The position numbers and the translations under genes are program-made. A model generated the notes under the pieces. The model was not told where the DNA came from and made no database searches. It was given only the letters and a program-made list of their open reading frames with translations. A DNA stretch of 64,000 bases, taken from Rhizobium sp. N324. Lineage in GTDB: Bacteria; Pseudomonadota; Alphaproteobacteria; Rhizobiales; Rhizobiaceae. Of this stretch, positions 21,014-34,010 are shown piece after piece. The stretch covers positions 434,001-498,000 of the forward strand of contig NZ_CP013634.1 of assembly GCF_001664485.1 (NCBI RefSeq). The letters are read 5' to 3'. Positions within the stretch are counted from its first letter, which is position 1; every line of letters begins with the position of its first letter.

Positions 21014-23419
21014 TCAGCGCAATTCGGCGGTGACCCGGAAGATGCCGCCGGCCGAGGCGTCGGAGCAGACGACGAAGGTCGAGCCTTCCTGCGCCATGAA
21101 CGCGACGTTGCCGCCGGCTTCGCAGGGGGTGGCGCTCCATTGCAGGAGGATGTCGCCATTATCGGGCAGTTTTTCCGGTTCCATCTTTGTCGCGCTGGCC
21201 ATCCATTCGGTTGCCGACGGCAGGTGGACGGGGGCGTTCAGCTGTTTCGACAGCCAGGCGGTGTAGTTCTGCGCTACGGCCAGCGGCACGTCGTCGGCCG
21301 GCAGCTGCGGGTTGTCGGCATAGGCCTGTGCAGAGGCGGGATCTGAATTGGCGGTGTAATAGGCCGCCATCTCGGCGCGGGTGACGGCCTTTGCCTGCAT
21401 GCAGAAGGATTTTTCGACCTTCACGGCGCCATTGGCGACGCCGAGCATGCCGCCGAGCTCCTTCATCGAGGCGGTCATCAGCCGGACATTCTCCAGCGAA
21501 TAACTGCCCGCCGGCACGGTCTCGAAGGCAAGGGTCGGCGAAACCGGGCAGAAGCCGCGCGCCGACAGCGCCTCGAGATCGGCAAGGATCGGTTTGTACG
21601 CCACGACGGCGAGCTTATAGGCCTCCGCGCTATAGCGGCCATCGGCCTCGCCGATCTTCGGCGTGAGTGCGGCAAGCGTCGGATCGGCGGCACCGGCGCG
21701 CGTAGTGATCGAGGCGCTGAGATCGGCGACCTTCTGCTTCAGGCCCGTCGCCTCGTCCTTCGACGCCATGACGTCGGCGATGATGGCGTCGAAAAGTTTG
21801 GCGGCGTCGCCATAGCCTGAGGTCGCCGCCGGCATCTGCCATTGCTCGGCCTTGGTTTTTGCCTCCGCCATCAGGCTGCTCGCCTTGGCGACGTCCGGAC
21901 TATCGCCGGCGCCGATGCGGTTGACCGTTTCGCGCTTGGCCGCCGCATCCTTTTCCGCCGCCGTCAGCGCCGTCAGCGCCTTGGCGAGATCGTCGAAAGC
22001 GGTTTTCGATGCATCGTAATTTTCGACGGCGCCGTGCATCTGCTTGGCGGCGGCGCTGTCGGCGGCGGTCTTCATCCTGGCGTCGGCCTCGGCGAAGCTC
22101 GGCGCCTTGTCGCCGCCGGCGGCCGAAGCCGACGCTTTCGCCTTCTCGGCATTCTCCTTCGAAATGGCGATCAGCGCATTGCCGAGATTGATGGCGGCAG
22201 ACTGATAGCCCGGAAGGGCTTTTTCATAATCTTCGTCCTTGAGCAGCGCATCGGCGGAGGTCAGCGCTGCCGCACCGGTGTCATAGGAAAGCTTGGCCTG
22301 GTCGCTGGCCGGGCGCTCCGGCGCCTTGGCGGCGATCGCCTTCTGCTTTCGGCTTTCGGCCTCCTTCTTCCAGGTGCCGACATCGGCGACGAGTTTCGGA
22401 TCCGGGCGCAGAAGTTTCGGAATGGTGATGGCGCCGACGCCGATGCAGATCAACAGCAGCGCTGCGATCATCGAGATTTTGACGGGCGTCCACTTTTTCG
22501 GTTTCGCCGCCTCCGGCTGCTGCGGCATGCCGCCGCGCGGATCCCAGGACATCGGCTGGATGCCCGTGGTCACCCTGGAGTATTCTCCGAGCGCATCGGC
22601 GCCGGTGCGCGGGCGCTGGGCCGGGTCGCGGCTCAGCATCCGTTCCACAAGGCTGGCGAGGCCTTCGGGAAAGCCGGGGATCAGCACGTCGAGGCGGGGA
22701 AAGACGTTGGAGGGATCGAGATGGATGTTCTTCCAGCTCTGCTCGCGCTGATGCTCGTCCTCCCAGACCATGACGCTGTCGAAGACGCTGTTATAGGTCT
22801 GGCGCGGCAGGAAGAGCTTGTAGGCGATCATGCCCATGGCGTAGATGTCGAGGGCGGCTGAAGCCGAGAAGGTGCCGCTGGCATAAATCTCCGGCGCGCC
22901 GAATTCCGGCACATAAGGCGGAATGATGTGCTCGCCGATCTTCGAGATCAGATGCAGATTGCCGATCCGGACCGACAGGCCGGAATAATCCTCGGAGACG
23001 TAGATGCATTGATCCGTCAGCGCATTGTGGGCGTAACCGGCGCCGTGCAGCGTCGCCAGGCCTTCGAGGATGTGGCGGCCGATCTCGGCGGCGCGCTCAT
23101 AGGCCACCATCTCGGTTTCGTCGAGATACTGGTGCAGCGTTTTCGACGGCCGCTTTTCGACGATGTAGAAATTGTCGTCTTCCGGCGACGGCGGGATCAG
23201 GTCCTCGATTTCGACGAAGCGGCGGGCGGTCAGCGATTTCGCCTCGTTGATGGAGGTCCAGACCCGCTCGAAACGCGCCTTATCCAATTTCAGCGCCACA
23301 TCGGGGGCGACGATGAAGACCGCATGGCCCATCCGCTTGTCCTCAGCGGGATAGACGATGAACTCGTTCTCATAGACCGGCTCGCCGATCGTGTAGCGGG
23401 CGATCAGATCACTTCTCAT
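21014..23419 (-). CDS. Membrane pseudokinase with C-terminal sulfatase-modifying-factor-like domain (801 aa)
   Basis: Residues 1-285 have a protein-kinase layout with GAPEIYAS (APE) and DIYAMGMIAYKLF (the D....G helix). The HRD loop reads AHNALTDQCIYV and the DFG position reads GNL, so catalytic Asp and metal-binding Asp are both missing: a pseudokinase. One membrane helix (about 315-336) follows, then a long Ala/Lys-rich helical region to about residue 630. The C-terminus (PAGSYSLENVR, KAVTRAEMAAYY, PADDVPLAVAQNYTAWLSKQ, HLPSATEWMASATKM) resembles a degenerate formylglycine-generating-enzyme/SUMF1 domain. The start at 23419 fits GGGGGAC better than the upstream codons. It is the last gene of the caspase-serpin operon and probably faces the periplasm with its C-terminus. 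Confidence 0.78.
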   Translation of the reverse strand: MRSDLIARYTIGEPVYENEFIVYPAEDKRMGHAVFIVAPDVALKLDKARFERVWTSINEAKSLTARRFVEIEDLIPPSPEDDNFYIVEKRPSKTLHQYLDETEMVAYERAAEIGRHILEGLATLHGAGYAHNALTDQCIYVSEDYSGLSVRIGNLHLISKIGEHIIPPYVPEFGAPEIYASGTFSASAALDIYAMGMIAYKLFLPRQTYNSVFDSVMVWEDEHQREQSWKNIHLDPSNVFPRLDVLIPGFPEGLASLVERMLSRDPAQRPRTGADALGEYSRVTTGIQPMSWDPRGGMPQQPEAAKPKKWTPVKISMIAALLLICIGVGAITIPKLLRPDPKLVADVGTWKKEAESRKQKAIAAKAPERPASDQAKLSYDTGAAALTSADALLKDEDYEKALPGYQSAAINLGNALIAISKENAEKAKASASAAGGDKAPSFAEADARMKTAADSAAAKQMHGAVENYDASKTAFDDLAKALTALTAAEKDAAAKRETVNRIGAGDSPDVAKASSLMAEAKTKAEQWQMPAATSGYGDAAKLFDAIIADVMASKDEATGLKQKVADLSASITTRAGAADPTLAALTPKIGEADGRYSAEAYKLAVVAYKPILADLEALSARGFCPVSPTLAFETVPAGSYSLENVRLMTASMKELGGMLGVANGAVKVEKSFCMQAKAVTRAEMAAYYTANSDPASAQAYADNPQLPADDVPLAVAQNYTAWLSKQLNAPVHLPSATEWMASATKMEPEKLPDNGDILLQWSATPCEAGGNVAFMAQEGSTFVVCSDASAGGIFRVTAELR

Positions 23420-23476
23420 GCACATGTCCCCCTGCAATCATTGGCATTCCATGAAACCGAATTCTATTCGCCCGCC

Positions 23477-23522
23477 AGAGCATGATGCCGAAAAATGTGA
23501 GCGGTTTTCGGCATCATGCTCT
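23477..23522. repeat. Perfect 18-bp-arm hairpin of the rhizobial GAGCATGATGCCGAAAA type
   Basis: AGAGCATGATGCCGAAAA and its exact reverse complement flank a 10-base loop (ATGTGAGCGG). It lies in the short gap between the serpin and the pseudokinase and could form an RNA stem within the operon transcript. Confidence 0.75.
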
Positions 23523-23534
23523 GACTCTTTAATG

Positions 23535-23585
23535 TAGAACAGGATTCAGATTTCAGGCCGAGAGGCCTTCAATCATCCTGTTCTA
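23535..23585. repeat. TAGAACAGGAT palindrome overlapping the serpin 3' end
   Basis: TAGAACAGGAT at one side pairs with ATCCTGTTCTA at the other, with a GGCC-GAGA-GGCC core. A related element lies at 48626-48677. Its right arm encodes the last serpin residues (LEQDD and the stop). Confidence 0.72.
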
Positions 23586-24753
23586 GTAGCGGATCGCCGA
23601 TCAGGCCGGCGGCCAGCACCAGGCCGGTCCTTGTATCCCTGAGCGCGAAGGCAAAGCGGGCATTGGCGACGACGCGAACGAGCTTGGGATCGATGCTGCG
23701 TTCCGTGATCGCTGCCGTGGCAGCTGCTGCCTCCGTGCCGTTTTCGTCAACCTTGATCATCGTCTTCTGAAGAACGCGCGACAAGCGAATGTTTTCCTTG
23801 GTGAAACCCGGGAAGGCCGAATGCTTGGCCTTTTCGGGTGTCAGTCCGATCGCGTTCAGCACCGGCATCAAATCACGCCCGTCGCTGAGGGAAAAGCGGG
23901 GCAGGAAGATTTCGCCCTTGACCGCCTCGAATTTTTCCCCCTGCAGCCAGGAGGCGAGCGCCTTCAGATCCGCGCCGCCAACGCCCTTGCCGGAGCGCGC
24001 GGCGATCACCACCATGCTGTAGCTCTCGTCCGTATAGGCAAGGTCGACGGCGGTGAATTTCTCGTCGACACGGAATTTCTGTCCGTCGCCTGTGAGATGC
24101 ATCATCGGCACCGAAACCGTCGAACCGTCCGGCCGCTGAAAGGGGCTTGCCGGGCTTTCCCTGTCGAAAGACGTTTTCCAGCGCGCCTTGAAGGACAGCG
24201 CGCCGAGGCTGACGAAACCGCCGCCCGGCGGCGCGTCCAGCATGACGGGAATGGCGCCGCGCGTCGTCTCCTTGACCCAGAGGTTGATATGCTCGACCGA
24301 CCCAGGTCCGTCGAGATCCTCGATCGAGGGTTTGACCCGGTGGCTGGCGAGCATGGAAAGCGCGTCGGGAGCGAGCATCAGCTTGTCGTCGAAGATGATG
24401 GCAACCGCGCTCGCCAAAGGCGCATCCGCGGCTGCCGGCTTTTCCGGCGTCATGGCGGCAAGCACCGTCTCCGGCCCCTTCACCTCGCCGCCGAAGCCGA
24501 GGCCCTTGGCGATCGCGGCCTTGCCTTCGGCGGAGGCGCCGAGGCTGGCAAGGCCGAGGGCTGCGGCAAGGCTTGCCGGCGACACCATGATATTGGCAGC
24601 ACCCTCCTTTGCCAGCGTGCGGCCGAGCAGTTCGGCGGCAAGCCCGGCCTGGGCTGAAAGCATCGATTTGCCGTCGCCGGCGTTGTCGGCATGGGCTGAG
24701 GCAAGCGTCAGCAGGGAAACGGCAAGGCCCGCCAGCAGAGTGGATTTCGGCAT
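23569..24753 (-). CDS. Secreted serpin (394 aa)
   Basis: A signal peptide (MPKSTLLAGLAVSLLTLASA, cut near HADN) precedes a complete serpin fold: NIMVSPASLAAALGLASLGA, INLWVKETTRGAIP, LGALSFKARWKTSF and VVANARFAFALRDTRTGLVL. The reactive-loop hinge VDENGTEAAAATAA is rich in small residues, the mark of inhibitory serpins. The loop continues ITERSIDPK, so Arg352-Ser353 is a likely cleavage pair; counting from the hinge Thr340 by the antithrombin pattern would put P1 on Ser353 instead. The trypsin-like gene lies 13 bases upstream in the same operon and has an Arg/Lys-type pocket, so it is the obvious target. The gene ends inside a repeat element. Confidence 0.88.
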   Translation of the reverse strand: MPKSTLLAGLAVSLLTLASAHADNAGDGKSMLSAQAGLAAELLGRTLAKEGAANIMVSPASLAAALGLASLGASAEGKAAIAKGLGFGGEVKGPETVLAAMTPEKPAAADAPLASAVAIIFDDKLMLAPDALSMLASHRVKPSIEDLDGPGSVEHINLWVKETTRGAIPVMLDAPPGGGFVSLGALSFKARWKTSFDRESPASPFQRPDGSTVSVPMMHLTGDGQKFRVDEKFTAVDLAYTDESYSMVVIAARSGKGVGGADLKALASWLQGEKFEAVKGEIFLPRFSLSDGRDLMPVLNAIGLTPEKAKHSAFPGFTKENIRLSRVLQKTMIKVDENGTEAAAATAAITERSIDPKLVRVVANARFAFALRDTRTGLVLAAGLIGDPLLEQDD

Positions 24754-24766
24754 GCTTCCCTCCCCT

Positions 24767-27322
24767 TCAGCGGATGCGATAGAATTTGGAATCGAACGAC
24801 CACTTGCCCTGGGCGCCGGTCTCGTCGTCGCCGACGATCCTTAAAGTGCGGGCGAGATCGTAGACATAGTTGAAGGCGGCGCGCTGGCCGACCAGCGGCG
24901 TCGGCACGTCCGGCAGGTCGAGCACCTCGATCGGCTTGTCGCTGAGAATGGCGACGACCATGCCGACGCCGGCCGGCCCCTCCACCACATATTCGAAGCC
25001 GGTATAGGGATTGCGCGCATCCGGCACGACGACCGGCCGGGTGGGATCGAGCCGGTTGTCGCCGCTCTTGGCGGTCGGTTTCAGCCCCATCGAGCGCTTG
25101 TTCGGGTAAAGTTGGGTCAGTTTGCCGGAGGCGTCGATATCGACCAGGATCAGGTAGCCTGATTTTTTGGTCGACACCCGCATCGCCACCTTGTCGCCGA
25201 TGCCGACCGAGGTGCCGGGCAGCACATCGACGGCGACACCCGCCTCATTGTCCGTCTTCAGCGTGTTCTCGACGGCGGCGACCGGGGTTTTCGCCTCCTC
25301 GCCGGTGATGACATCGCGGCCGAGCGCATCCGGCTGGCCGTAGAATTGCGGCACCGGCGTGAAGCGGCAATCCTCAGCATGCGTCCGGCAATATTCGTCG
25401 GATTTGCGTCTGACATAATCGAGCAGGGCGGCATTGCTGATAGTCGGCTTGTCGGCGGCGCGCGCCACGCCATCCTGTACACCTTCGATGAAGCGGCGGG
25501 TGAAGACGCCGACCGGCGGCTTGGCCTCGCGGTCGACCAGCGCCCACTGGCCTGAATTGACGGCCGACCAGACCATGGCGTTTTCGCCGCCGAAGGAGAA
25601 TTTCGCCTCCTTGCCCGATTTGTTCGGCGTTTCGAGTGCTGCCAGCGCCGGACCGAGGCAACGCACGTTGCCGCCGCTTGGTGCCGCCACCGCGCTGCGG
25701 CTGCCGGGCCCGACATGGCAGGCATCGATCAGCAGCGTAACGCGGCGGTCCTTGAGGCTGTTCAGCCGTGCGGCGATCTCCGTCTCGCGGATCTGGTTGG
25801 TGACCGTCAGCTTGCCGGCCTCGCGCATCAGCTTGGCGTCGGCTGCGACAAGCGTCGGGCTGGTTGTTTCCTCGGCGCCCATTTCCTCTGAACCTTGGCC
25901 GCTGAAATAGAGGAAGACCCGGCTGCCGGGCGTCGACTGGCGTACCAGCCAGTCGTCGATTTCCGCAAGGATCGCCTCGCGGCTCGCCTTGCGGTTGGTC
26001 AGCGTGTGGATCTGTTCCGGGCGGTAGGCGAGCGTCTTCACCAGGAAGAGCTGCATCGCCTTGACGTCGCTGGCGGAGCCGGTGAGTTTTGCCTCGCGCA
26101 TCTCGTAATCGTCGATGCCGATCAGCAGCGCGCGATCGCCGGGAGAGCTTTGGATGCCGGGTGTTTGGCCATCGGGGACCTGGACAGTGGGCGTCTTGAT
26201 GGCGGGCGGCTGGATGGTGGGTTCCCCGGCGGCAGGCTTGTCAGCCGGCGCGGGTTCGACGGCTGATGCGTCGGGTGTTTGGCTCGTGGCGGCAGGGGCG
26301 GTATCGCCGGCGGGCGGGGTGGTGATGGCGAGATTGGCCAGTTTCTGGCCGGATTGCCTGAGCTTGGTCCCGGGAACGGTGGTGGTCGAGGCGACCTGAT
26401 CGGCGGGCGGCATTTCGACATTCGGCACGTCGCCATCGGTCTTGGCGGCGATCCAGTCGCGGAAGGCGGCGACGCGGGTATAGACGCCGTAATGTTCGGC
26501 CTCGGCGCAGCCGGCACCCCAGCTGACGATGCCGAGCTGGATCCAGCTTTTGTCGGAACGCTGGGCCACCAGCGGCCCGCCGCTGTCGCCCTGGCAGGCA
26601 TCCTTGCCGCCTTCGGCATAACCGGCGCAGACATTGCGCTCGTCGATCGGGTTCATCCGCATCGAGCTGTCGCGATAGGCCGCACGGCAATCCTCACGCG
26701 GGACGATCGGCAGCTCGACTTCCTGCAGCTCGGTCGGCAGGTATTTGTCGTCCCAGCCGTGATCGGCCTTGGTGTAGCCCCAGCCGGTGACGACGGCCTT
26801 GTGGCCGGCCGCCTCCACCTCGTCATCGGAGGCCGAGGCGAGAATGGCCGGCCTGGAGACGGCGGGCTCGGCCAGCTTGATCAGGGCGATGTCGTTGGCA
26901 AAGACCTTGCGGTCGAAATCCTCGTGAATGACCACGTCTTCGACGGCAAGGCCGGGTTTATCCGGCCCGTCGACCGAGATCACCTTGTCGATCTTCGACT
27001 TGCCCTCGACGATCAGCAGGTCGCGGGCGAACAGATCCTGCTTGCCGGAGCGGCCGCTGGTGACGCAATGGGCGGCGGTCAATATCCAGCGCGGCGCGAT
27101 CAGCGAGCCGCCGCAATGGCCGCCGAAGCGGCCGCGCTGTTCGGGATCGGGCGCCAGGATTTTCACCTGCCAGGGCCATTCGCCCTTCTTCGCCGCCTGG
27201 CCGCCGATCACACGGCCGCCATCCTCGCCGGCAAAATCGGTATCCTGCTGCGTCAGCGCCGGCGCAGCCAGCAGCAGCACCACAGAGGCAATGGTGATGA
27301 CCCTGCTGATCGACGCGCTCAT
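24767..27322 (-). CDS. Trypsin-like protease fused to caspase-fold domain and DUF4384 (851 aa)
   Basis: A signal peptide (residues about 1-25) leads to a chymotrypsin-fold domain with zymogen site Arg37-Val38 (GGRVIGGQAAKKGEWPWQV), His85 (LTAAHC), Asp144 (NDIALIKL) and Ser247 (DACQGDSGGP). Asp241 at the S1 base predicts Arg/Lys specificity. A Pro/Thr/Ala linker (about 300-392) joins a caspase-like domain: ALLIGIDDYEM, LYFSGQGSEE and LLIDACHVGPG. Cys535 is present, but the catalytic His is Gln476, so the domain is probably inactive or altered. A DUF4384 region (GDKVAMRVSTKKSGYLILVD, LTQLYPNK) ends the protein. Its ATG overlaps the stop of the upstream caspase gene (ATGA). Confidence 0.88.
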   Translation of the reverse strand: MSASISRVITIASVVLLLAAPALTQQDTDFAGEDGGRVIGGQAAKKGEWPWQVKILAPDPEQRGRFGGHCGGSLIAPRWILTAAHCVTSGRSGKQDLFARDLLIVEGKSKIDKVISVDGPDKPGLAVEDVVIHEDFDRKVFANDIALIKLAEPAVSRPAILASASDDEVEAAGHKAVVTGWGYTKADHGWDDKYLPTELQEVELPIVPREDCRAAYRDSSMRMNPIDERNVCAGYAEGGKDACQGDSGGPLVAQRSDKSWIQLGIVSWGAGCAEAEHYGVYTRVAAFRDWIAAKTDGDVPNVEMPPADQVASTTTVPGTKLRQSGQKLANLAITTPPAGDTAPAATSQTPDASAVEPAPADKPAAGEPTIQPPAIKTPTVQVPDGQTPGIQSSPGDRALLIGIDDYEMREAKLTGSASDVKAMQLFLVKTLAYRPEQIHTLTNRKASREAILAEIDDWLVRQSTPGSRVFLYFSGQGSEEMGAEETTSPTLVAADAKLMREAGKLTVTNQIRETEIAARLNSLKDRRVTLLIDACHVGPGSRSAVAAPSGGNVRCLGPALAALETPNKSGKEAKFSFGGENAMVWSAVNSGQWALVDREAKPPVGVFTRRFIEGVQDGVARAADKPTISNAALLDYVRRKSDEYCRTHAEDCRFTPVPQFYGQPDALGRDVITGEEAKTPVAAVENTLKTDNEAGVAVDVLPGTSVGIGDKVAMRVSTKKSGYLILVDIDASGKLTQLYPNKRSMGLKPTAKSGDNRLDPTRPVVVPDARNPYTGFEYVVEGPAGVGMVVAILSDKPIEVLDLPDVPTPLVGQRAAFNYVYDLARTLRIVGDDETGAQGKWSFDSKFYRIR

Positions 27323-28935
27323 AGCTTGACTCCGGCGGAGGTATAGAGGACCGTAAATCCGACGCGGGCGCCCTTGGGCAGGACGTCGCCGAGCCGCCTG
27401 GCAATATTGCCGGCGGTGCGGCGCCTGTCGTTCTGCTTGAGGAACTCGACGAGCTCGGGCATCGGCTTTTCCGAGGTGACGGCGACGAGCAGATCGGTGC
27501 CGAAGGGGGCAACGACGGAGAGATCGAGATCGAAACTCGCCGACATCTCGGCATCGATCTCTTTCTCACCGGGATAGAGGAACTGCACGGTTCCATCGCC
27601 GGTGACGTCGAAGAGCACGAGCTTGCGGCCGGAGAGATCGGATACCGCCACGCCGACACGCTCGCCCTCCCGATGGACGGTATCGGAGGGGGTGACGCGC
27701 ACGGTCTGCGGGTTGGCCTCCGACAGCCGCTTCAGCGTGTCGAGCGCGGCCATCCGGTCGACGACGAACGGCATGTCGCCGGCGCCGATGCCGGAGGCGA
27801 CGACATCGCCGCCGGCAACCGCCTCGCGTTTTTCCGGATCGAAGATCAGTTCGGCAGCGGCGGTTTCCGTCAGCTTGAACGGCGTGACGGCCGGGTCGAT
27901 GCCCTGCAGCACCGGCTCGGCGCCGAGGGCGGCGACGCTGATCGGCGCGGGCTCGACCGGCGGCGGCGTGGATGATTTCGCTGCTTCTGCCGTCGTTCCC
28001 GCCCCTTCGTAATTATAGACGACCGCGCGGTCGAGATCGGTTCCCGGCGGGCTTTCGGTGAAGATGTTCTGCCGCTGGTCGGTGAACTGGTAGACCGACT
28101 GGCGCACATATTCGAAGAGTTCGCGGCGGCTGACGGCGCCATCGCCGTTGCGGTCGGCCGCCCCTTCGAAGGCGCGGGCGGTGGCATAGCTCAGCGCGCC
28201 GCGTTTCTGCGGGATGCCGGGAATGGAGATTTCAGGCGACTTGGTGTTGTCGTCGACGGCGGCGAGGAAGGTCAGCCGTTTGTAATCGAAGCCGGTGGAG
28301 AGCGCGTCCGCCGTCGTCGAGATCGGCGCGAGGTCGTCCTCCTCGATCGTATAGGAGGGCGCCTGGCGCCAGGTGATCTCGGCGCCGCGCGGATCGACAT
28401 CGCGGGTCATGCCGCCGGCATGGCAGGTATCGGCGATGAAGAGCACATCGGCGCCCTTGGTCTCCAAGTTGCGGATCAGCACTTTGAACTCGTCGCCGAA
28501 GATGCGTTCGCGCGATCCGGGCAGCCTTGTGTCGAAGCCGGCGAGCACATAGACCTCGTCGCGGCCGCTCGGTTTCGAGCCCTTGACGCGCTCCGGCTCG
28601 CTCGAGCCATGGCCCGCGATGCCGAGCACGACGAGATCGCCGGCGCCAGCCCGTTCCGTCACGGCCTCGATCGCATGGAAGATGCCCTCGCGGTCGGCCT
28701 CGCCGTTCTTCAACAGCGTCATGTCTTCGACACCGACCGAACGCAGCGACAGCGAAAGATCCTCGGCATCGGCGACGGCGCCGTGCAGCGGCGGAACGTT
28801 GCGGTAAAGATCGATGCCGATCAGCACCGCCCGGACGGCGCCGCGCTCCGGCGCCTCGATGGTTTTTGCCAGGGTCTCTGTCGCCGCCAGGCTGAGGAGG
28901 GCGAATGCGGCGGCCATGGAAACGGATGCGGACAT
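27319..28935 (-). CDS. Secreted caspase-family protease with EF-hand and DUF4384 (538 aa)
   Basis: A signal peptide (residues 1-24) precedes a Peptidase C14-like domain: AVLIGIDLYRNVPPLHGAVA, His109 in VLGIAGHGSS and Cys171 in IADTCHAGG, so the His-Cys dyad is intact. DRNGDGAVSRRE (261-272) matches a canonical EF-hand loop with D, N, D, S and E at positions 1, 3, 5, 9 and 12, which suggests calcium control. The C-terminal third contains a DUF4384 region (VGVAVSDLSGRKLVLFDVTG, QFLYPGEKEI). The ATG at 28935 is chosen over a TTG two codons earlier. The gene overlaps the trypsin-caspase gene by four bases and follows the OmpA gene by 22 bases. Confidence 0.87.
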   Translation of the reverse strand: MSASVSMAAAFALLSLAATETLAKTIEAPERGAVRAVLIGIDLYRNVPPLHGAVADAEDLSLSLRSVGVEDMTLLKNGEADREGIFHAIEAVTERAGAGDLVVLGIAGHGSSEPERVKGSKPSGRDEVYVLAGFDTRLPGSRERIFGDEFKVLIRNLETKGADVLFIADTCHAGGMTRDVDPRGAEITWRQAPSYTIEEDDLAPISTTADALSTGFDYKRLTFLAAVDDNTKSPEISIPGIPQKRGALSYATARAFEGAADRNGDGAVSRRELFEYVRQSVYQFTDQRQNIFTESPPGTDLDRAVVYNYEGAGTTAEAAKSSTPPPVEPAPISVAALGAEPVLQGIDPAVTPFKLTETAAAELIFDPEKREAVAGGDVVASGIGAGDMPFVVDRMAALDTLKRLSEANPQTVRVTPSDTVHREGERVGVAVSDLSGRKLVLFDVTGDGTVQFLYPGEKEIDAEMSASFDLDLSVVAPFGTDLLVAVTSEKPMPELVEFLKQNDRRRTAGNIARRLGDVLPKGARVGFTVLYTSAGVKL

Positions 28936-28957
28936 GGCCAAACTCCCCTCGCCCCGG

Positions 28958-30889
28958 CTATTCGCGACGCCATTCGACGCGGCGGTTCAGCGCATCGACA
29001 TCGTCTTCGGTGAGGTTTGCGGTTGCGGTCACGTCGACCGGCTCGGAGGCGCCGCGGCCTTCGGCATCGATCGACGCATCGATGCCGTGGCTCTTGAGGA
29101 AATCGGCCACCGCCTGGGCGCGGCGCTCGGAGAGCTTCTGATTATAGTCGTCGCCGCCGCGCCGGTCGGTGTGGCCGATCAGGATGATGCGGCCGGGCTT
29201 CTGCTCCTTCAGCGCCTCCAGCAATTCCTCGGCCGCCTCGGTGCCGATCGAGGTGAAGCTCGACTTGTCGAAGTCGAAGGTGATCGGCACGGGAATGGAG
29301 ACCGGCACGATGCCGCGGACATTTTCGGAATAGATGCCGCCGAGCACGCCGCTGCGGTGGTCTTTCTCGGCCGGGACGAAGCTGCCTTCAGGGTTGTCAC
29401 TCGTCGGATTGGCGGCCAGGATGCGGGCCTGGGCGGCGCGCTGGATGAGATCGGAGATGGTGTCGGCCGGCGGCGCCTTCGGCGTGCGGGTCTCGTTCTT
29501 GATGATTTCGATCGCCTGCTGGTAATCGGCGGCGGCATCGGCAAAGCGGCGGGCGGAGAAATAGATCTCGCCGAGCGTGGCGGAGGCCTGCCAGAGCACC
29601 TGCGGGCTGTCGGCGGCGACCAGCAGCGGCTCGTAATCGGCGACCGGCTGGTTGGCGGCCATCATCTCCTGGGCGGCGGCAAGCCTGAGGGCCGCAACGC
29701 GGCGCTGGGCATTGACCTGGAACTGGCCGCATTCGGCGCTGACGGCGATCGCATCGGCCTCGGACGCCGCCGCCGTGATATCCTTGGCGGCAACGGCGGT
29801 GTTCAGCTTGTCGAGAAGGGCAGTGCAGGCAGGCGTGTCGGCATTCGCGACTTCGATCTCTTCGCCGGCCTCGGGTTCGGCCGAGCGGCCGAGGTTGAGC
29901 TGCGGCATCTTGATGCTGAAGCCGCCTGGAAGTTTGAATTGCGGCATCTTCAGCTGCGGCATCGGCAGCTTCGGCATCTTCGCCTGGGAGGATTGGGCGG
30001 GCTGCTTATACTGGCTCGGTCGGGTGGAGGCGGTGGTGTCGGCGGGGCCGATCAGTTGCAGTTCATCGGCGGCAAGCTCCTGGCCGGGCGCCAGATTGGT
30101 GACGATCTTGTATTTCTTCGGCGGCTGCGTCGTCGCCTGCTCCACCGGTTTCGGCGTCACCTTTTTCGGGGCCACAGGCTTCGGTTTTTCCACGGCCGTG
30201 TCCGGCTTCTTGGCGACTTCCTGTTTGATCACCGGCTTCGGCTTCGGCTTCGGCGCAACCGGCGGCTTGGCCGCCTGTTCGATCGGTTTTGTGGCGGGAG
30301 CGGCTGCAACCGGCGGGGCTGCGGCGGGCGGCAGGGCCGCCGGGCTGTCGACCGTCGTCAGCATCAGCGTCTTACTGCTGATCTTGGTGCCGAGGCTGCG
30401 GGCCTCTTCCAGGCTGCGGGACACGGCATCCATGCCGCCGTCGATCGAGCGGAACATGCCGCTGCCGCTGCCGCCGAGATCGGCGAAGATGGTCAGCGGC
30501 TTGGATGAATAGAAGACCTTGATCTGCTCCTGGCCCACCGGGCCGGAGACCTGCAGCCGGGCGCCGCTGGCCGGATCCGGCACCTGCACGCGCTTGCCGG
30601 GGCCGACGAGGGCATCGGTCTGATATTTGTTCGGGAAAAGTTTGACGACGGAGCCGTTCGGCGAGACGTTGATCACCGTGACGTAGCTGTTCTCGGTCGA
30701 CTGGATGAACAGGCCGACGACTTCGCCGATGGCGTATTTGGCCTCGGCGCGATCGAAGGTGATGCTGACGGGTCCGGTCTGGACCGGCGCTTCGGTCAGT
30801 GTGCGTTCGTTCTGCGCCTCGACGGCGGGAACCACCGCAAAGAACGAGAGAAAGGTGGCTGCGGCTAGGATGGCTTTGCGGTTCGACAT
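28958..30889 (-). CDS. OmpA-family protein with N-terminal DUF4384 (643 aa)
   Basis: A signal peptide (MSNRKAILAAATFLSFFAVV to EAQ) leads to a DUF4384 region (YAIGEVVGLFIQSTENSYVT, SVVKLFPNKYQTD). A long Pro/Lys/Ala linker follows, then a short MPQL/MPQF repeat, a helical TPR-like part (ARRFADAAADYQQAIEIIKN), and a C-terminal OmpA domain (ITFDFDKSSF, IILIGHTDRRGGDDYNQKLS, RRAQAVADFL). The OmpA domain should bind peptidoglycan. AGGAGG precedes the ATG at 30889. It is the first gene of the operon with the caspase, trypsin-caspase, serpin and pseudokinase genes and probably anchors the module to the wall. Confidence 0.87.
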   Translation of the reverse strand: MSNRKAILAAATFLSFFAVVPAVEAQNERTLTEAPVQTGPVSITFDRAEAKYAIGEVVGLFIQSTENSYVTVINVSPNGSVVKLFPNKYQTDALVGPGKRVQVPDPASGARLQVSGPVGQEQIKVFYSSKPLTIFADLGGSGSGMFRSIDGGMDAVSRSLEEARSLGTKISSKTLMLTTVDSPAALPPAAAPPVAAAPATKPIEQAAKPPVAPKPKPKPVIKQEVAKKPDTAVEKPKPVAPKKVTPKPVEQATTQPPKKYKIVTNLAPGQELAADELQLIGPADTTASTRPSQYKQPAQSSQAKMPKLPMPQLKMPQFKLPGGFSIKMPQLNLGRSAEPEAGEEIEVANADTPACTALLDKLNTAVAAKDITAAASEADAIAVSAECGQFQVNAQRRVAALRLAAAQEMMAANQPVADYEPLLVAADSPQVLWQASATLGEIYFSARRFADAAADYQQAIEIIKNETRTPKAPPADTISDLIQRAAQARILAANPTSDNPEGSFVPAEKDHRSGVLGGIYSENVRGIVPVSIPVPITFDFDKSSFTSIGTEAAEELLEALKEQKPGRIILIGHTDRRGGDDYNQKLSERRAQAVADFLKSHGIDASIDAEGRGASEPVDVTATANLTEDDVDALNRRVEWRRE

Positions 30890-31100: not shown

Positions 31101-31478
31101 TTAGTTCTTGGGTTTCTGCCCGGCTGATTTCAAAATCGAGATCAGGTCGCTCATGCCCTCGGGCGAGGAATTGTAGAGCCAGAGAATATCCGGATTGTCG
31201 ACCGTGAATTCCTTACCAAGGCCCGAGCCCATGTCGCGGCCTGGCGAGGTCTCGTCTGGCAGCTTGTCCTTTCCCGGCGTCAGCCCCTTGGCTTGTTCAT
31301 GTTCGGCGATGAGTGCGGCGGCAGCAGCAAAGGCCTTTTCGTCATGCTGGCGGAGCGCCGCCAGCGAGGGGTTGCGGGCCGCCAGCGCGTCTTCCATCGG
31401 GCCGGCATGAGCAAGCTGAGACACGTGCAGCGCCAGCAGCAGGCCGATCGACAGGGGTATGAGCCGGGATTTCGTCAT
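31101..31478 (-). CDS. Small secreted hypothetical protein (125 aa)
   Basis: The protein has a clear signal peptide (MTKSRLIPLSIGLLLALHVS to AHA), then a short helical, charged mature part (NPSLAALRQHDEKAFAAAAA) and ends near PEGMSDLISILKSAGQ. No family was recognised. The start at 31478 is chosen because the signal peptide begins there. It is upstream of the OmpA gene on the same strand with a 211-base gap that may hold the operon promoter. Confidence 0.65.
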   Translation of the reverse strand: MTKSRLIPLSIGLLLALHVSQLAHAGPMEDALAARNPSLAALRQHDEKAFAAAAALIAEHEQAKGLTPGKDKLPDETSPGRDMGSGLGKEFTVDNPDILWLYNSSPEGMSDLISILKSAGQKPKN

Positions 31479-31634
31479 CGTCGTCACATCCGTCCTATGG
31501 GGCGCCATTCGCGCGACATGCTTACCGACAATAGGGAGAGGCCGGAAGGAAGGCAACGGCGCTCGGTGCCCATCGATTGGGAGGGGTGAAATCGGCTGGC
31601 CGCGCAGCGCCCGACATCGGGTCGCGGCACTTGC

Positions 31635-32225
31635 TCAGAGGATCTTCAGTTGCTGCAGGCTAAGGCGGAGATCGCGCAGCATCTCGCCGAAGATCTCCTC
31701 GATCTTGCCCGTCGACCAGACGACCATGGTGCCATAGGGCGAGCGCTTGCGCTGCATGAAGCCCGCCGTCTCGAAATCGATCAGCGTCTTGCGGCAGGTC
31801 TCGCTCGACATCACCGCCACGAGGAACCGGGCGAGATTGGACTGGTCGATGGCGCCTGATTTCTCCGCCCAGTTCTGGATCAGCCGCGGCTTGGTGTCGG
31901 CGGTAAACATCGAGGCGAGCGCGCGATCCTGCGACAGCCCGAGGCGCTGCAGCTTGGCCGGGTCGCGGGTCAGCGACACCACGTAATCATTGTGCAGATC
32001 GGCGAAGCGCTCGATATCCTCGGCCGCGCTGATGCCGAACACCTTCATCGAATAGAGGAACTCGGCCATCAGATAGGTCGGCTCGGAGCGCAGCTGCGCC
32101 AGATGCTTGTCGTCGGCGCTTTGCGAGGCGGCGCAGACGCGATCGGAGAAGCCGATCCTTGCGGCGCGCACCTGCTCCAGCAGGCTGATGTCGAGCGCCA
32201 GTTCGTCACCGTTCCATTCCAGCAT
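31635..32225 (-). CDS. Hypothetical cytoplasmic protein with a winged-helix-like C-terminus
   Basis: This is a soluble, mainly helical protein of about 196-207 residues. The C-terminal 70 residues (NLARFLVAVMSSETCRKTLI, DFETAGFMQRKRSPYGTMVV) have a helix-helix-wing look, as in MarR-type regulators. ATGs at 32258, 32231 and 32225 are in frame; AGGGA stands at good spacing before 32225. The gene is divergent from the NlpC/P60-like gene and may regulate it, but I do not recognise the family. Confidence 0.6.
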   Translation of the reverse strand: MLEWNGDELALDISLLEQVRAARIGFSDRVCAASQSADDKHLAQLRSEPTYLMAEFLYSMKVFGISAAEDIERFADLHNDYVVSLTRDPAKLQRLGLSQDRALASMFTADTKPRLIQNWAEKSGAIDQSNLARFLVAVMSSETCRKTLIDFETAGFMQRKRSPYGTMVVWSTGKIEEIFGEMLRDLRLSLQQLKIL

Positions 32226-32405
32226 AAGCATTCCCTGCCCGCAAATCTTGGAGACCATGATCTTGTACTATTCCAGGCGCAGATCTCCAAATCGTTTGGA
32301 AAGCAACGGCTTGCTGACAAGGCGCATCTATCTTACCATTTCCAAGACTTGACGGTCATAGAGGGCCGAGCCGGCCTGACATCGTCCTGTTCGGGGGTCG
32401 AGGAC

Positions 32406-34010
32406 ATGCGTAGTCTTGGGTCGCATATTCTGATTGCCGCGGCACTTGCGGTCGCTTCGCCGGTTTTTGCCAAGGACACGACGATTATCGAGCTTCGTAG
32501 CGGCGATGGCGGCCGCTCGGTCGGCATCATTTCCGCCAGCGAGGAAGTCGAGGCATCGGGACCTGCGGCGATCACCGTCGGCGACGACGGCACCATCTAT
32601 ATTCTCGACCAGAACAACGGCCGCGTGCTCGCCATCGACGCCGAGCGCTCGCAGGCCGAGCCCCAAATCCTGCCTCTGCCGGAAAATGCGACCCCGGAAG
32701 ATCTCGCCGTCGTCCACAACGAACTCTACCTCTGGTCTGATGGTGTCGTGCCGCTCGAGCGTGCCACGGAAGCCGATGGAAGGTCGCAGACGCTGCGCGC
32801 CGTCGACGGCGGCGATGCCGACGATTACACCCGCTCGGTCTTCGCCTCGATGGGCTCGGTGCCGCCGGGGCCGCTGAACAGCATCGTCGACGAGATCGGC
32901 CGCAGCACCAGCCGACCGGCGGCCCGCCCGCCGGTCGTTCAATATGTGCCGAGCCGCGGGCTCGGCGATATCGTCGCCGAGGTTTCGGCTGTAAATGACA
33001 AGGCCGAGATCCTGCTGCGGCGCAGCAGCTCGGAGGAGAATTTCCTGTCGCTGCAGCTCACCGCCGAGGGCCGCATCGGCACCGTCGAACTTCTCGACAT
33101 CGACACGACGGGCCGGCCCTATGCGCTGGTCGAGCTGGTGCCCGCCGATCAGCCGGAGCGCACCGGCATGCTGGTGGCGCGCTTCACGCCGAACGGGGTG
33201 GTGGACCGGATCTACGACCTGCCGATCGACCCCGGCACGGTGTTTTCCCGGCGTTTCGTGGCGATCGGCCCGCGCGGCGACGTGCTCTATCTCAAATCGC
33301 AGGAAAGCCGGGCGCAGGTGCTGCGGCTCGACGGCCGCGATCCCGGCCGAAAACTCGCCGTCGCGCGGCCGGCAAAACCGCTCAATGCCGGCAAGCCCGG
33401 CAAGGCGCCGAAACTGGCGATCGTGCCGAAGTCGCGCAGCGACGTCATCGAGCGGGCGATCGGCTTCGAAACCTTGAACTGGCTGGTGACGTCATCAGCC
33501 TATGGCAAGGATCCGGGCCCCGGCTGCATCAACATGAACCGGCTGCGCCGGCCGATCTATCTGATCGGCAAGCGCGGCCAGACGGTGAAGGGCGTTCCCT
33601 ATTGCTGGGGCTGCAAGACCCGGCTCGAGGATTTCATGGACGGCGTCGAAAAGGGCCAGACCGCCGGCAATGTCTGCACCAAGAGCGCGCCGCAAACCAA
33701 CATCCTCGGTGTCGACTGCTCCGGCTTCGTCAGCGACGCCTGGGGCCTGAAGATGCATGTCTCGACGCGCGCCATCCCTGATATCACCAAACGCGTCTCC
33801 GACCCCTGGTCGATGCGGCCGGGCGACGCGCTGAACAAGCCGGGTTCGCATGTGCTCTTGTTCATGCGCTTCACCGACGACCGCAAGGTCGAGGTGATGG
33901 AGGCCTCGCCCAACGCCTGCAAGGGCCGCGTCTGCCGCAACACCTATTCACTCGGCAGCCTGCTGATGCGCGGCTATCAGCCGGTGCGTTTCAAGGGGCT
34001 GGATGGGTGA
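32406..34010 (+). CDS. Secreted NlpC/P60-like peptidase with N-terminal propeller-like region (534 aa)
   Basis: A signal peptide (MRSLGSHILIAAALAVASPV, cut after FA) precedes about 300 residues with strand-rich, propeller-like motifs (ITVGDDGTIYILDQNNGRVL, FVAIGPRGDVLYLKS). The C-terminal part carries the papain-like motifs of NlpC/P60 enzymes: GVPYCWGCKTRLEDF, GVDCSGFVSDAWGL with the nucleophile Cys near residue 438, and GSHVLLFMRF with His near 481. A substrate in peptidoglycan is likely from the family, but not shown. The start at 32406 is chosen because the upstream extension of the frame has no signal and overlaps the divergent gene. Confidence 0.82.
   Translation: MRSLGSHILIAAALAVASPVFAKDTTIIELRSGDGGRSVGIISASEEVEASGPAAITVGDDGTIYILDQNNGRVLAIDAERSQAEPQILPLPENATPEDLAVVHNELYLWSDGVVPLERATEADGRSQTLRAVDGGDADDYTRSVFASMGSVPPGPLNSIVDEIGRSTSRPAARPPVVQYVPSRGLGDIVAEVSAVNDKAEILLRRSSSEENFLSLQLTAEGRIGTVELLDIDTTGRPYALVELVPADQPERTGMLVARFTPNGVVDRIYDLPIDPGTVFSRRFVAIGPRGDVLYLKSQESRAQVLRLDGRDPGRKLAVARPAKPLNAGKPGKAPKLAIVPKSRSDVIERAIGFETLNWLVTSSAYGKDPGPGCINMNRLRRPIYLIGKRGQTVKGVPYCWGCKTRLEDFMDGVEKGQTAGNVCTKSAPQTNILGVDCSGFVSDAWGLKMHVSTRAIPDITKRVSDPWSMRPGDALNKPGSHVLLFMRFTDDRKVEVMEASPNACKGRVCRNTYSLGSLLMRGYQPVRFKGLDG

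What the first reader, a model, noticed from the sequence alone, without database searches (positions are those of the whole stretch)
21014..30889. Operon joining caspases, a trypsin, a serpin, a pseudokinase and an OmpA anchor
Five co-directional genes with gaps of 150 bases or fewer (two overlap by four bases) encode an OmpA/DUF4384 protein, a caspase with EF-hand and DUF4384, a secreted trypsin fused to a caspase fold and DUF4384, a secreted serpin, and a transmembrane pseudokinase with a degenerate SUMF1-like end. Protease, candidate inhibitor, pseudoenzymes and a wall anchor in one transcript look like a regulated envelope proteolytic cascade. I know of no described bacterial system with this set; that is a statement of my knowledge, not a search.
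Basis: partly seen in the sequence, partly recalled or inferred. Interest (0 to 1): 0.92.

Follow-up and report, generated by a model that had tools for sequence, protein, structure and literature searches.

The report
Bacterial trypsin–caspase operon with built-in serpin
Root-nodule bacteria carry a strictly conserved gene set that puts a trypsin-type protease, a caspase and a serpin inhibitor side by side; the serpin's invariant arginine bait is predicted to trap one of its own neighbour proteases, which would give bacterial serpins, whose natural targets are mostly unknown, a built-in target.

Summary
Five genes (OmpA-DUF4384, caspase, trypsin::pseudocaspase::DUF4384, serpin, pseudokinase) lie in order on the minus strand, 21014-30889. 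In 148 genomes of the genus the trypsin fusion and the pseudokinase occur in the same 44, the serpin in those plus one unlinked; the order is intact in all 44. Across them the trypsin zymogen site, triad and Asp189, the caspase His/Cys, the pseudocaspase Gln-for-His and the serpin's hinge and Arg-Ser bait are invariant. The bait loop is the serpin's most constrained part (dN/dS 0.03 against 0.17), as expected of a fixed target. Chthonobacter, another family, has all five genes; shorter trypsin-serpin or caspase-serpin sets recur in the order. The OmpA gene's orthologue (tag by count, pRL110591) is published as needed for lentil root colonisation. Best reading: an Arg-specific protease system, probably exported, with its own suicide inhibitor, an OmpA anchor and a pseudokinase reporter. 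Order and motifs are shown; inhibition, activation and substrate are inferred. The fusion's architecture was published in 2019; I found no paper on the serpin or the set. Against: a close relative lacks the serpin, and Labrys has the bait without the trypsin, so the caspase may be the target.

The parts
28958..30889 (-). OmpA-DUF4384 gene (hydrophobic leader, DUF4384 at 30497-30736, TPR-like, OmpA peptidoglycan-binding domain 29018-29281)
   Evidence: dN/dS 0.12
27319..28941 (-). Caspase (orthocaspase-like) with hydrophobic leader, intact His/Cys dyad (GHGS, DTCHAGG), one EF-hand loop and a DUF4384-like tail
   Evidence: H and C 44 of 44; GSU0716 and AtMC4 alignments; EF loop
28120..28155 (-). 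EF-hand loop of the caspase; ligand positions D1, N3, D5, V8, E12 invariant in 44 of 44
24767..27322 (-). Trypsin::pseudocaspase::DUF4384 fusion with hydrophobic leader
26444..27214 (-). Trypsin domain: zymogen cleavage site R37-V38 (GRVIGG), catalytic triad, Asp189 (DACQGDSGGP); nearest solved relatives plasma kallikrein and factor XI
25283..26146 (-). Pseudocaspase domain, catalytic His replaced by Gln (GQG), Cys kept
24932..25201 (-). DUF4384 domain of the trypsin fusion
23569..24753 (-). Serpin with inhibitory hinge; leader looks like a signal peptide but is under the hydropathy cut-off used
23680..23745 (-). Serpin reactive loop; bait Arg352-Ser353 (Arg codon 23698-23700) invariant in 44 of 44; dN/dS 0.031 against 0.166 for the body
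23477..23522 (.). 18-base inverted repeat between serpin and pseudokinase, where this strain has a 131-base gap (6-113 in 43 relatives)
21014..23437 (-). Transmembrane pseudokinase: kinase fold with HRD to HNA and DFG to GNL, one TM segment (residues ~321-339), helical region, SUMF1-like end (sub-threshold)
31101..31556 (-). Small protein h151, upstream in 43 of 43 fetched relatives and in Chthonobacter and G590; probable part of the conserved block
31635..32258 (-). h207, uncharacterised protein, present in 43 of 43 fetched genus relatives and beside the module in seven loci outside the genus (30-62% identity)
32406..34010 (+). Divergent NHL-propeller protein with NlpC/P60-like end (sub-threshold Pfam 15.2 against 23 bits); found in 43 of 43 relatives (some cut), Chthonobacter and G590; candidate substrate or effector
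35834..38416 (-). Third caspase gene (caspase + Sel1), within the fetched stretch in 37 of 43 relatives but not in the tight block

Best explanation
This is a conserved operon-like block for an arginine-specific protease system, predicted to be exported, with its own inhibitor: a trypsin zymogen is likely switched on by cleavage after Arg37, and the neighbouring serpin is predicted to shut the system off by offering Arg352 as bait. Shown: gene order, zymogen site, triad, Asp189, an intact caspase dyad, a dead trypsin-fused caspase, and an invariant serpin hinge and Arg-Ser bait. Inferred: export (three hydrophobic leaders, a weaker one on the serpin); the Ca2+-binding caspase (Asp two residues before its Cys, as in Arg/Lys-specific metacaspases; recalled) or the trypsin itself cuts Arg37; the pseudocaspase and DUF4384 domains hold the trypsin at the OmpA protein, which binds peptidoglycan; the serpin ends activity by suicide trapping of the trypsin and possibly also of the caspase; the transmembrane pseudokinase passes the extracytoplasmic state to the cytosol. 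The substrate is likely an envelope or surface protein that matters on roots, for example the divergent NHL/NlpC-P60-like protein.
For: Same 44 of 148 genus genomes for trypsin fusion and pseudokinase, serpin in these plus one; order intact in 43 of 43 fetched relatives with trypsin-serpin gaps of 11-16 bases and a 4-base caspase-trypsin overlap in 40 of 43. Motifs invariant 44 of 44. Reactive loop dN/dS 0.031 against serpin body 0.166, trypsin 0.077, pseudocaspase 0.095, pseudokinase 0.062 (a random 20 of 43 sequences per gene). Nearest solved relatives of the trypsin domain are plasma kallikrein and factor XI (1.6e-46). All five genes in Chthonobacter rhizosphaerae, another family. Of 397 genomes of the order 17 have a serpin; in 9 of 17 a trypsin match lies within 10 kb and in one more a caspase; 15 of 17 have a match to either part of the fusion protein against 62 of 380 without serpin (p 6e-10; by genus 8 of 10 against 39 of 131, p 0.002). 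One search scored only two candidates per genome, so its counts are lower bounds. All 9 linked serpins in the tree carry Arg at the bait position. Root phenotype: PMC11103875 section 21 (read whole) names the outer membrane protein pRL110591 as specifically required for lentil colonisation; by tag count from pRL110598 = L-fuconate dehydratase this is the OmpA-DUF4384 gene.
Against: No biochemistry. G590, same genus as Chthonobacter, has the block without the serpin. Of 11 order genomes with a trypsin::pseudocaspase fusion only 4 have the serpin in the locus (one locus is cut by a contig end). Two Labrys genomes scored in full have an Arg-Ser serpin and caspase genes but no similar trypsin at E 1e-10; three more genomes of that genus agree, where only two candidates were scored. 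G774 has caspase-serpin without a trypsin in the 12.5 kb read. A caspase-domain match also lies about 1 kb from the serpin in G542 and G507 and about 8 kb from it in three Labrys loci, so the caspase may be the older target. Arg bait in linked against unlinked serpins of the clade is 8 of 8 against 3 of 5, not significant (p 0.13). The loop is one residue shorter from hinge to Arg than in conserpin (C1-inhibitor is alike, recalled); by strict count Ser would be P1. The AlphaFold models were poor (mean pLDDT 45.7 and 56.0). The lentil screen had no independent replicates per plant.
Confidence: 0.52

Rival explanations
1. The serpin mainly brakes the active caspase (orthocaspase), and the trypsin is a later recruit to a caspase-OmpA-DUF4384 core.
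For: Core OmpA-caspase-caspase::DUF4384 loci without trypsin or serpin occur in six loci read (L151-L154, L158, L160). G774 has caspase-serpin with Arg bait and no trypsin in the 12.5 kb read. Two fully scored Labrys genomes have Arg-bait serpins and caspase genes and no similar trypsin, with a caspase-domain match about 8 kb from the serpin in three Labrys loci. G542 and G507 have a caspase-domain match about 1 kb downstream of the serpin. The caspase carries Asp at Cys-2 like AtMC4, so an Arg bait fits it too; plant serpins inhibit metacaspases (recalled).
Against: In 43 of 43 Rhizobium relatives the serpin gene directly follows the trypsin gene by 11-16 bases, and trypsin::DUF4384-serpin pairs also stand next to each other in G574, G542 and G507.
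Confidence: 0.28
2. The serpin is a shield against foreign proteases (plant or soil), and its place beside the trypsin is a shared-export or shared-regulation convenience.
For: Some known bacterial serpins such as miropin and siropins inhibit host proteases (PMC8233489 section 12, read whole); the carriers are root bacteria; the OmpA gene matters on lentil roots.
Against: The bait loop is the most conserved part of the serpin, whereas a shield against changing foreign proteases would be expected to vary; linkage recurs in several families.
Confidence: 0.15
3. An anti-phage or cell-death module of the caspase/trypsin kind.
For: PADLOC models for 'caspase' and a few kinase defence proteins match at domain level; trypsin-nuclease and caspase-nuclease defence pairs exist (PMC12799240, passages).
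Against: Three of the four have hydrophobic export-type leaders and the serpin a weaker one, no nuclease domain was found in the eight proteins scanned, and matches to defence kinases are far below model scores (MAD6 47 against 460 bits). The block is intact in 44 species; whether its spread follows the species tree was not tested.
Confidence: 0.05

Closest known systems
Trypsin::QC pseudo-orthocaspase::DUF4384 proteins of Alphaproteobacteria (PMC6426788, passages seen)
   Same: Same architecture: N-terminal trypsin with intact triad, QC dyad in the caspase domain, C-terminal DUF4384.
   Different: That paper's main text has no mention of serpins (0 occurrences) and, in the passages seen, no operon; it proposes a role in photosynthesis, whereas the 44 carriers here are Rhizobium (non-photosynthetic, recalled).
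Characterised bacterial serpins (miropin, siropins, chloropin; PMC8233489 section 12, PMC10090351 passages)
   Same: Serpin fold and inhibitory hinge.
   Different: Their natural targets are host proteases or unknown; here an Arg-specific protease is encoded 13 bases away and the bait is frozen.
Caspase-nuclease (canu) and trypsin-nuclease defence pairs (PMC12799240, passages)
   Same: A bacterial caspase or trypsin co-encoded with a partner it acts on.
   Different: Nuclease effector and no mention of serpins (0 occurrences); here no nuclease and export-type leaders.
Protease-inhibitor operons such as staphopain-staphostatin (recalled, no call)
   Same: Protease and dedicated inhibitor in one operon.
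   Different: Inhibitor is not a serpin; no caspase, pseudokinase or OmpA partner.
Plasma kallikrein / factor XI with C1-inhibitor (works like; kallikrein match, C1-inhibitor recalled)
   Same: Trypsin-type zymogen cut after Arg and stopped by an Arg-bait serpin with a short loop.
   Different: Eukaryotic blood system; no evidence of common descent of the circuit.

Membership tests
Inhibitory serpin | Serpin fold profile | tested here: met
   PF00079 2.7e-55; conserpin 2.7e-33
Inhibitory serpin | Hinge P17-P8 (E..G-T-E-A-A-A-A-T) | tested here: met
   every hinge position identical in at least 43 of 44
Inhibitory serpin | SDS-stable covalent trapping of a protease | not testable with these tools
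   needs purified proteins
Trypsin-type S1A zymogen protease | Activation site, His-Asp-Ser triad, Asp189 | tested here: met
   44 of 44; residue-by-residue against plasma kallikrein
Active orthocaspase/metacaspase (second gene) | His-Cys dyad, Asp at Cys-2 | tested here: met
   44 of 44; alignment to AtMC4
Pseudo-orthocaspase, QC type (trypsin fusion) | Gln for His, Cys kept, N-terminal trypsin, C-terminal DUF4384 | tested here: met
Active Ser/Thr kinase | HRD Asp and DFG Asp | tested here: not met
   HNA and GNL in 44 of 44; so filed as pseudokinase; Chthonobacter and G590 have GDL but still HNA
Formylglycine-generating (SUMF1) enzyme | Full FGE-sulfatase profile | tested here: inconclusive
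   16.9 bits against cut-off 23.3
Caspase/trypsin-nuclease defence system | Partner nuclease | tested here: not met
   no nuclease domain in the eight proteins scanned
Exported system | Signal peptide on protease, caspase, OmpA and serpin | tested here: inconclusive
   hydropathy peak at the N-terminus of three; serpin leader under the cut-off; no signal-peptide predictor at hand
One transcriptional unit | Shared mRNA across the five genes | not testable with these tools
   only spacing and conserved order

The most novel reading that the evidence does not exclude
A complete clotting-like proteolytic circuit evolved inside a bacterial envelope: a calcium-gated caspase fires a kallikrein-type trypsin zymogen held by a dead caspase at an OmpA anchor, a dedicated serpin ends the pulse by suicide trapping, and a pseudokinase receptor reports the event, tuning the surface for root colonisation.
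Probability: 0.3. Interest if true: 0.95.

Novelty: categorically new. Interest (0 to 1): 0.86.

Why it matters
[quoted passage not shown] a 2023 study says the target proteases of many prokaryotic serpins remain elusive (PMC10090351 passage). This block supplies a bacterial serpin with obvious, co-inherited candidate targets, so the question becomes a direct enzyme assay. It also offers a handle on what bacterial caspases with export-type leaders and the trypsin-pseudocaspase fusions do, in R. leguminosarum 3841 and R. etli CFN 42, which carry the block; in 3841 the OmpA member already has a root phenotype (tag matched by count).

Tried and rejected
Structure prediction of the trypsin fusion and of the pseudokinase gave low confidence (mean pLDDT 45.7 and 56.0; alignments of 16 and 8 rows), so no fold search was run on them. 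The idea that an Arg bait marks linked serpins only was tested and not supported (8 of 8 against 3 of 5, p 0.13; Labrys and a Bradyrhizobium MAG carry Arg-Ser without the block). The idea that G542 and G507 lack a caspase beside the serpin did not survive a recheck. The idea that only trypsin fusion kills the caspase domain is also not clean: 2 of 8 unfused caspase::DUF4384 relatives (L153, L160) have lost both residues. Defence-system membership was considered and rejected. A winged-helix reading of h207 was looked for; only an insignificant HTH_20 match (E 0.099 in 1 of 6 members) and no solved relative. Promoter and terminator scans were not above chance. Searching the library with guessed R. 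etli tags gave nothing. The serpin tree places eight of nine linked serpins in one group (support 93/95, under the tool's star) with unlinked ones nested; the Cohaesibacter row is too long-branched to place, so one or several recruitments cannot be told apart. A first genus-level test miscounted one genus and was redone (p 0.003 became 0.002). Novelty searches, seen as listings only: 6 papers; 3; 25 of 54 listed; 12 of 497; 0; 1; 20 of 41; 0; no listed title or abstract concerns this operon or a rhizobial serpin; subscription papers are not held. A draft serpin alignment held one row read from the wrong strand; it was dropped and rebuilt without it.
Full report
1. What is there. Five genes run on the minus strand between 30889 and 21014: OmpA-DUF4384; a caspase; a trypsin::caspase::DUF4384 fusion; a serpin; and a kinase-like transmembrane protein. 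OmpA, caspase and trypsin fusion begin with hydrophobic leaders; the serpin's leader looks like a signal peptide to the eye but did not reach the cut-off; the fifth has one transmembrane segment near residue 330 (hydropathy only, no signal-peptide predictor was at hand).

2. It is a unit. I searched all 148 held genomes of the genus. The trypsin fusion is found in 44 (43 whole, one in two pieces; four further genomes have trypsin-only matches), the serpin in 45, and the pseudokinase in 44 (searches scored the six best candidates per genome). The 44 are the same; the 45th serpin (G433) is unlinked and lacks the rest. I fetched all 43 other carriers: in 43 of 43 the order h151-ompA-casp-tryp-serpin-pkin is intact, the caspase and trypsin genes overlap by 4 bases in 40 of 43, and trypsin to serpin is 11-16 bases. 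In three strains (L064, L070, L106) the upstream neighbour h207 is pushed away by extra DNA, but none splits the five. In named records, 83 plasmids hold at least 80% of the block in one place; R. johnstonii 3841 pRL11 and R. etli CFN 42 p42e carry it annotated. 25 of 25 Rhizobium loci found through the serpin in the species collection have the same order.

3. The active sites tell the roles. In 44 of 44 sequences the trypsin has a zymogen cleavage site after Arg37 (GRVIGG), the full triad and Asp189, the mark of cleavage after Arg or Lys (numbering recalled, alignment to plasma kallikrein). The second protein's caspase keeps His and Cys in 44 of 44, with Asp two residues before Cys as in plant metacaspase-4, and has a full EF-hand loop with invariant ligands. 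The caspase inside the trypsin fusion has Gln for His in 44 of 44. The serpin has an inhibitory hinge and an Arg-Ser pair at the bait position in 44 of 44. The kinase lacks the HRD and DFG aspartates in 44 of 44.

4. Selection. Pairwise dN/dS on a random 20 of 43 sequences per gene: trypsin domain 0.077, pseudocaspase 0.095, DUF4384 0.078, pseudokinase domain 0.062, serpin body 0.166 and serpin reactive loop 0.031 (22 codons). The dead domains are kept about as strictly as live ones. The bait loop, often the fastest part of a serpin (recalled), is here the slowest, which points to one fixed target.

5. Relatives in the order. A search of 397 genomes with the trypsin fusion gave 77 with a match to some part (two candidates scored per genome, so a lower bound), and for serpins 17. 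Chthonobacter rhizosphaerae (L142/L186) has all five genes plus h151, h207 and the divergent NHL gene. G590, of the same genus, has all but the serpin. G574 has OmpA-caspase-trypsin::DUF4384-serpin; a Cohaesibacter MAG has unfused caspase, caspase::DUF4384, OmpA, serpin and trypsin within about 10 kb; G542 and G507 have trypsin::DUF4384-serpin pairs with a caspase-domain match about 1 kb on; G681 has caspase, trypsin::DUF4384, OmpA and serpin; G774 has caspase-serpin (Pfam check of some members). Six loci have only the OmpA-caspase-caspase::DUF4384 core. Of eight unfused caspase::DUF4384 proteins six keep His and Cys and two (L153, L160) have lost both; of the eight trypsin-fused relatives outside the genus one (Chthonobacter) keeps both, G590 has Gln-Cys like Rhizobium, and the six of one other family have Gln and no Cys. 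So the caspase that fused to trypsin tends to die, though not only there. By counts, 9 of 17 serpin genomes have a trypsin match within 10 kb and one more has a caspase; 15 of 17 have a match to either part of the fusion protein against 62 of 380 (p 6e-10; by genus 8 of 10 against 39 of 131, p 0.002). These counts are not corrected for kinship beyond the genus. The uncharacterised h207 is present in 43 of 43 genus relatives and beside six of the seven linked serpin loci outside the genus that I read (not G574), and in none of the eight unlinked serpin stretches tested.

6. Bait and target. All nine linked serpins in the tree carry Arg at the bait position. Unlinked ones of the same group do in 3 of 5; the difference is not significant. 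Of 14 serpins outside the order found in the same scan one has Arg in the aligned column (L204) and a few have it one or two residues off, and 0 of 14 such loci, several of them short, showed a trypsin or caspase neighbour by my profiles. Because orthocaspases also cut after positively charged residues (PMC6426788 abstract, start seen), the bait cannot tell trypsin from caspase. Two Labrys genomes scored in full and G774 speak for the caspase; direct trypsin-serpin adjacency in Rhizobium, Chthonobacter, G574, G542 and G507 speaks for the trypsin.

7. Biology. [quoted passage not shown] pooled samples, no independent replicates). The tag is matched here by count: PMC7105596 (passage) gives pRL110598 = L-fuconate dehydratase, which is WP_011655321; seven back in the consecutive accessions is WP_011655314, the OmpA-DUF4384 gene. 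I could not open the tables, so the other four genes' values are unknown, and polar effects are possible. By the same count the gene downstream of the block is pRL110586, listed at +2.3 in a praR mutant (PMC4149787 passage); the five are not named in that paper's main text (term counts). A transposon study of 3841 has no mention of caspase, serpin or trypsin in its main text (PMC5118466).

8. What is known. The fusion protein's architecture was described in 2019 (PMC6426788 passages), with a suggested role in photosynthesis that Rhizobium does not fit (recalled). No title or abstract listed or 99 concerns the serpin, the operon or the set. Serpin authors state that the targets of many prokaryotic serpins are unknown. 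I therefore rate the system as categorically new while holding the full circuit at 0.3.

Noticed in passing
31635-32258 (h207); L142:2159-2779, L141:15342-15962, L150:9579-10124, L226:12446-12982, L227:6611-7147, L228:3275-3826, L230:7286-7813: An uncharacterised ~200-residue protein without significant Pfam or solved relatives recurs beside the trypsin/serpin/caspase loci of several families (30-62% identity) and in none of eight unlinked serpin stretches tested; it may be the module's regulator.
   Followed up: partly
32406-34010: Divergently transcribed NHL-propeller protein with a DCSGF...GSHV...EASPNAC end that resembles NlpC/P60 peptidases below cut-off; conserved at 58-59% in Chthonobacter and G590.
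   Followed up: partly
L151-L154, L158, L160: An OmpA-caspase-caspase::DUF4384 core without trypsin or serpin in six loci of the order may be the ancestral caspase module; I did not search the literature for it as a locus.
   Followed up: partly
23477-23522: Perfect 18-base inverted repeat of intergenic-element type between serpin and pseudokinase, where this strain's gap is longer than in any of 43 relatives; may act as a terminator or processing site.
   Followed up: partly
35834-38416: A third caspase gene (caspase + Sel1 repeats) lies about 5 kb upstream; it is within the fetched stretch in 37 of 43 relatives.
   Followed up: partly
L002/L003, L159 (G053, G144): Another genus of the family has a stronger-scoring, unlinked serpin (7e-87); that of G053 has an Arg-Ser bait and its genome no trypsin-fusion match at E 1e-10.
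   Followed up: partly
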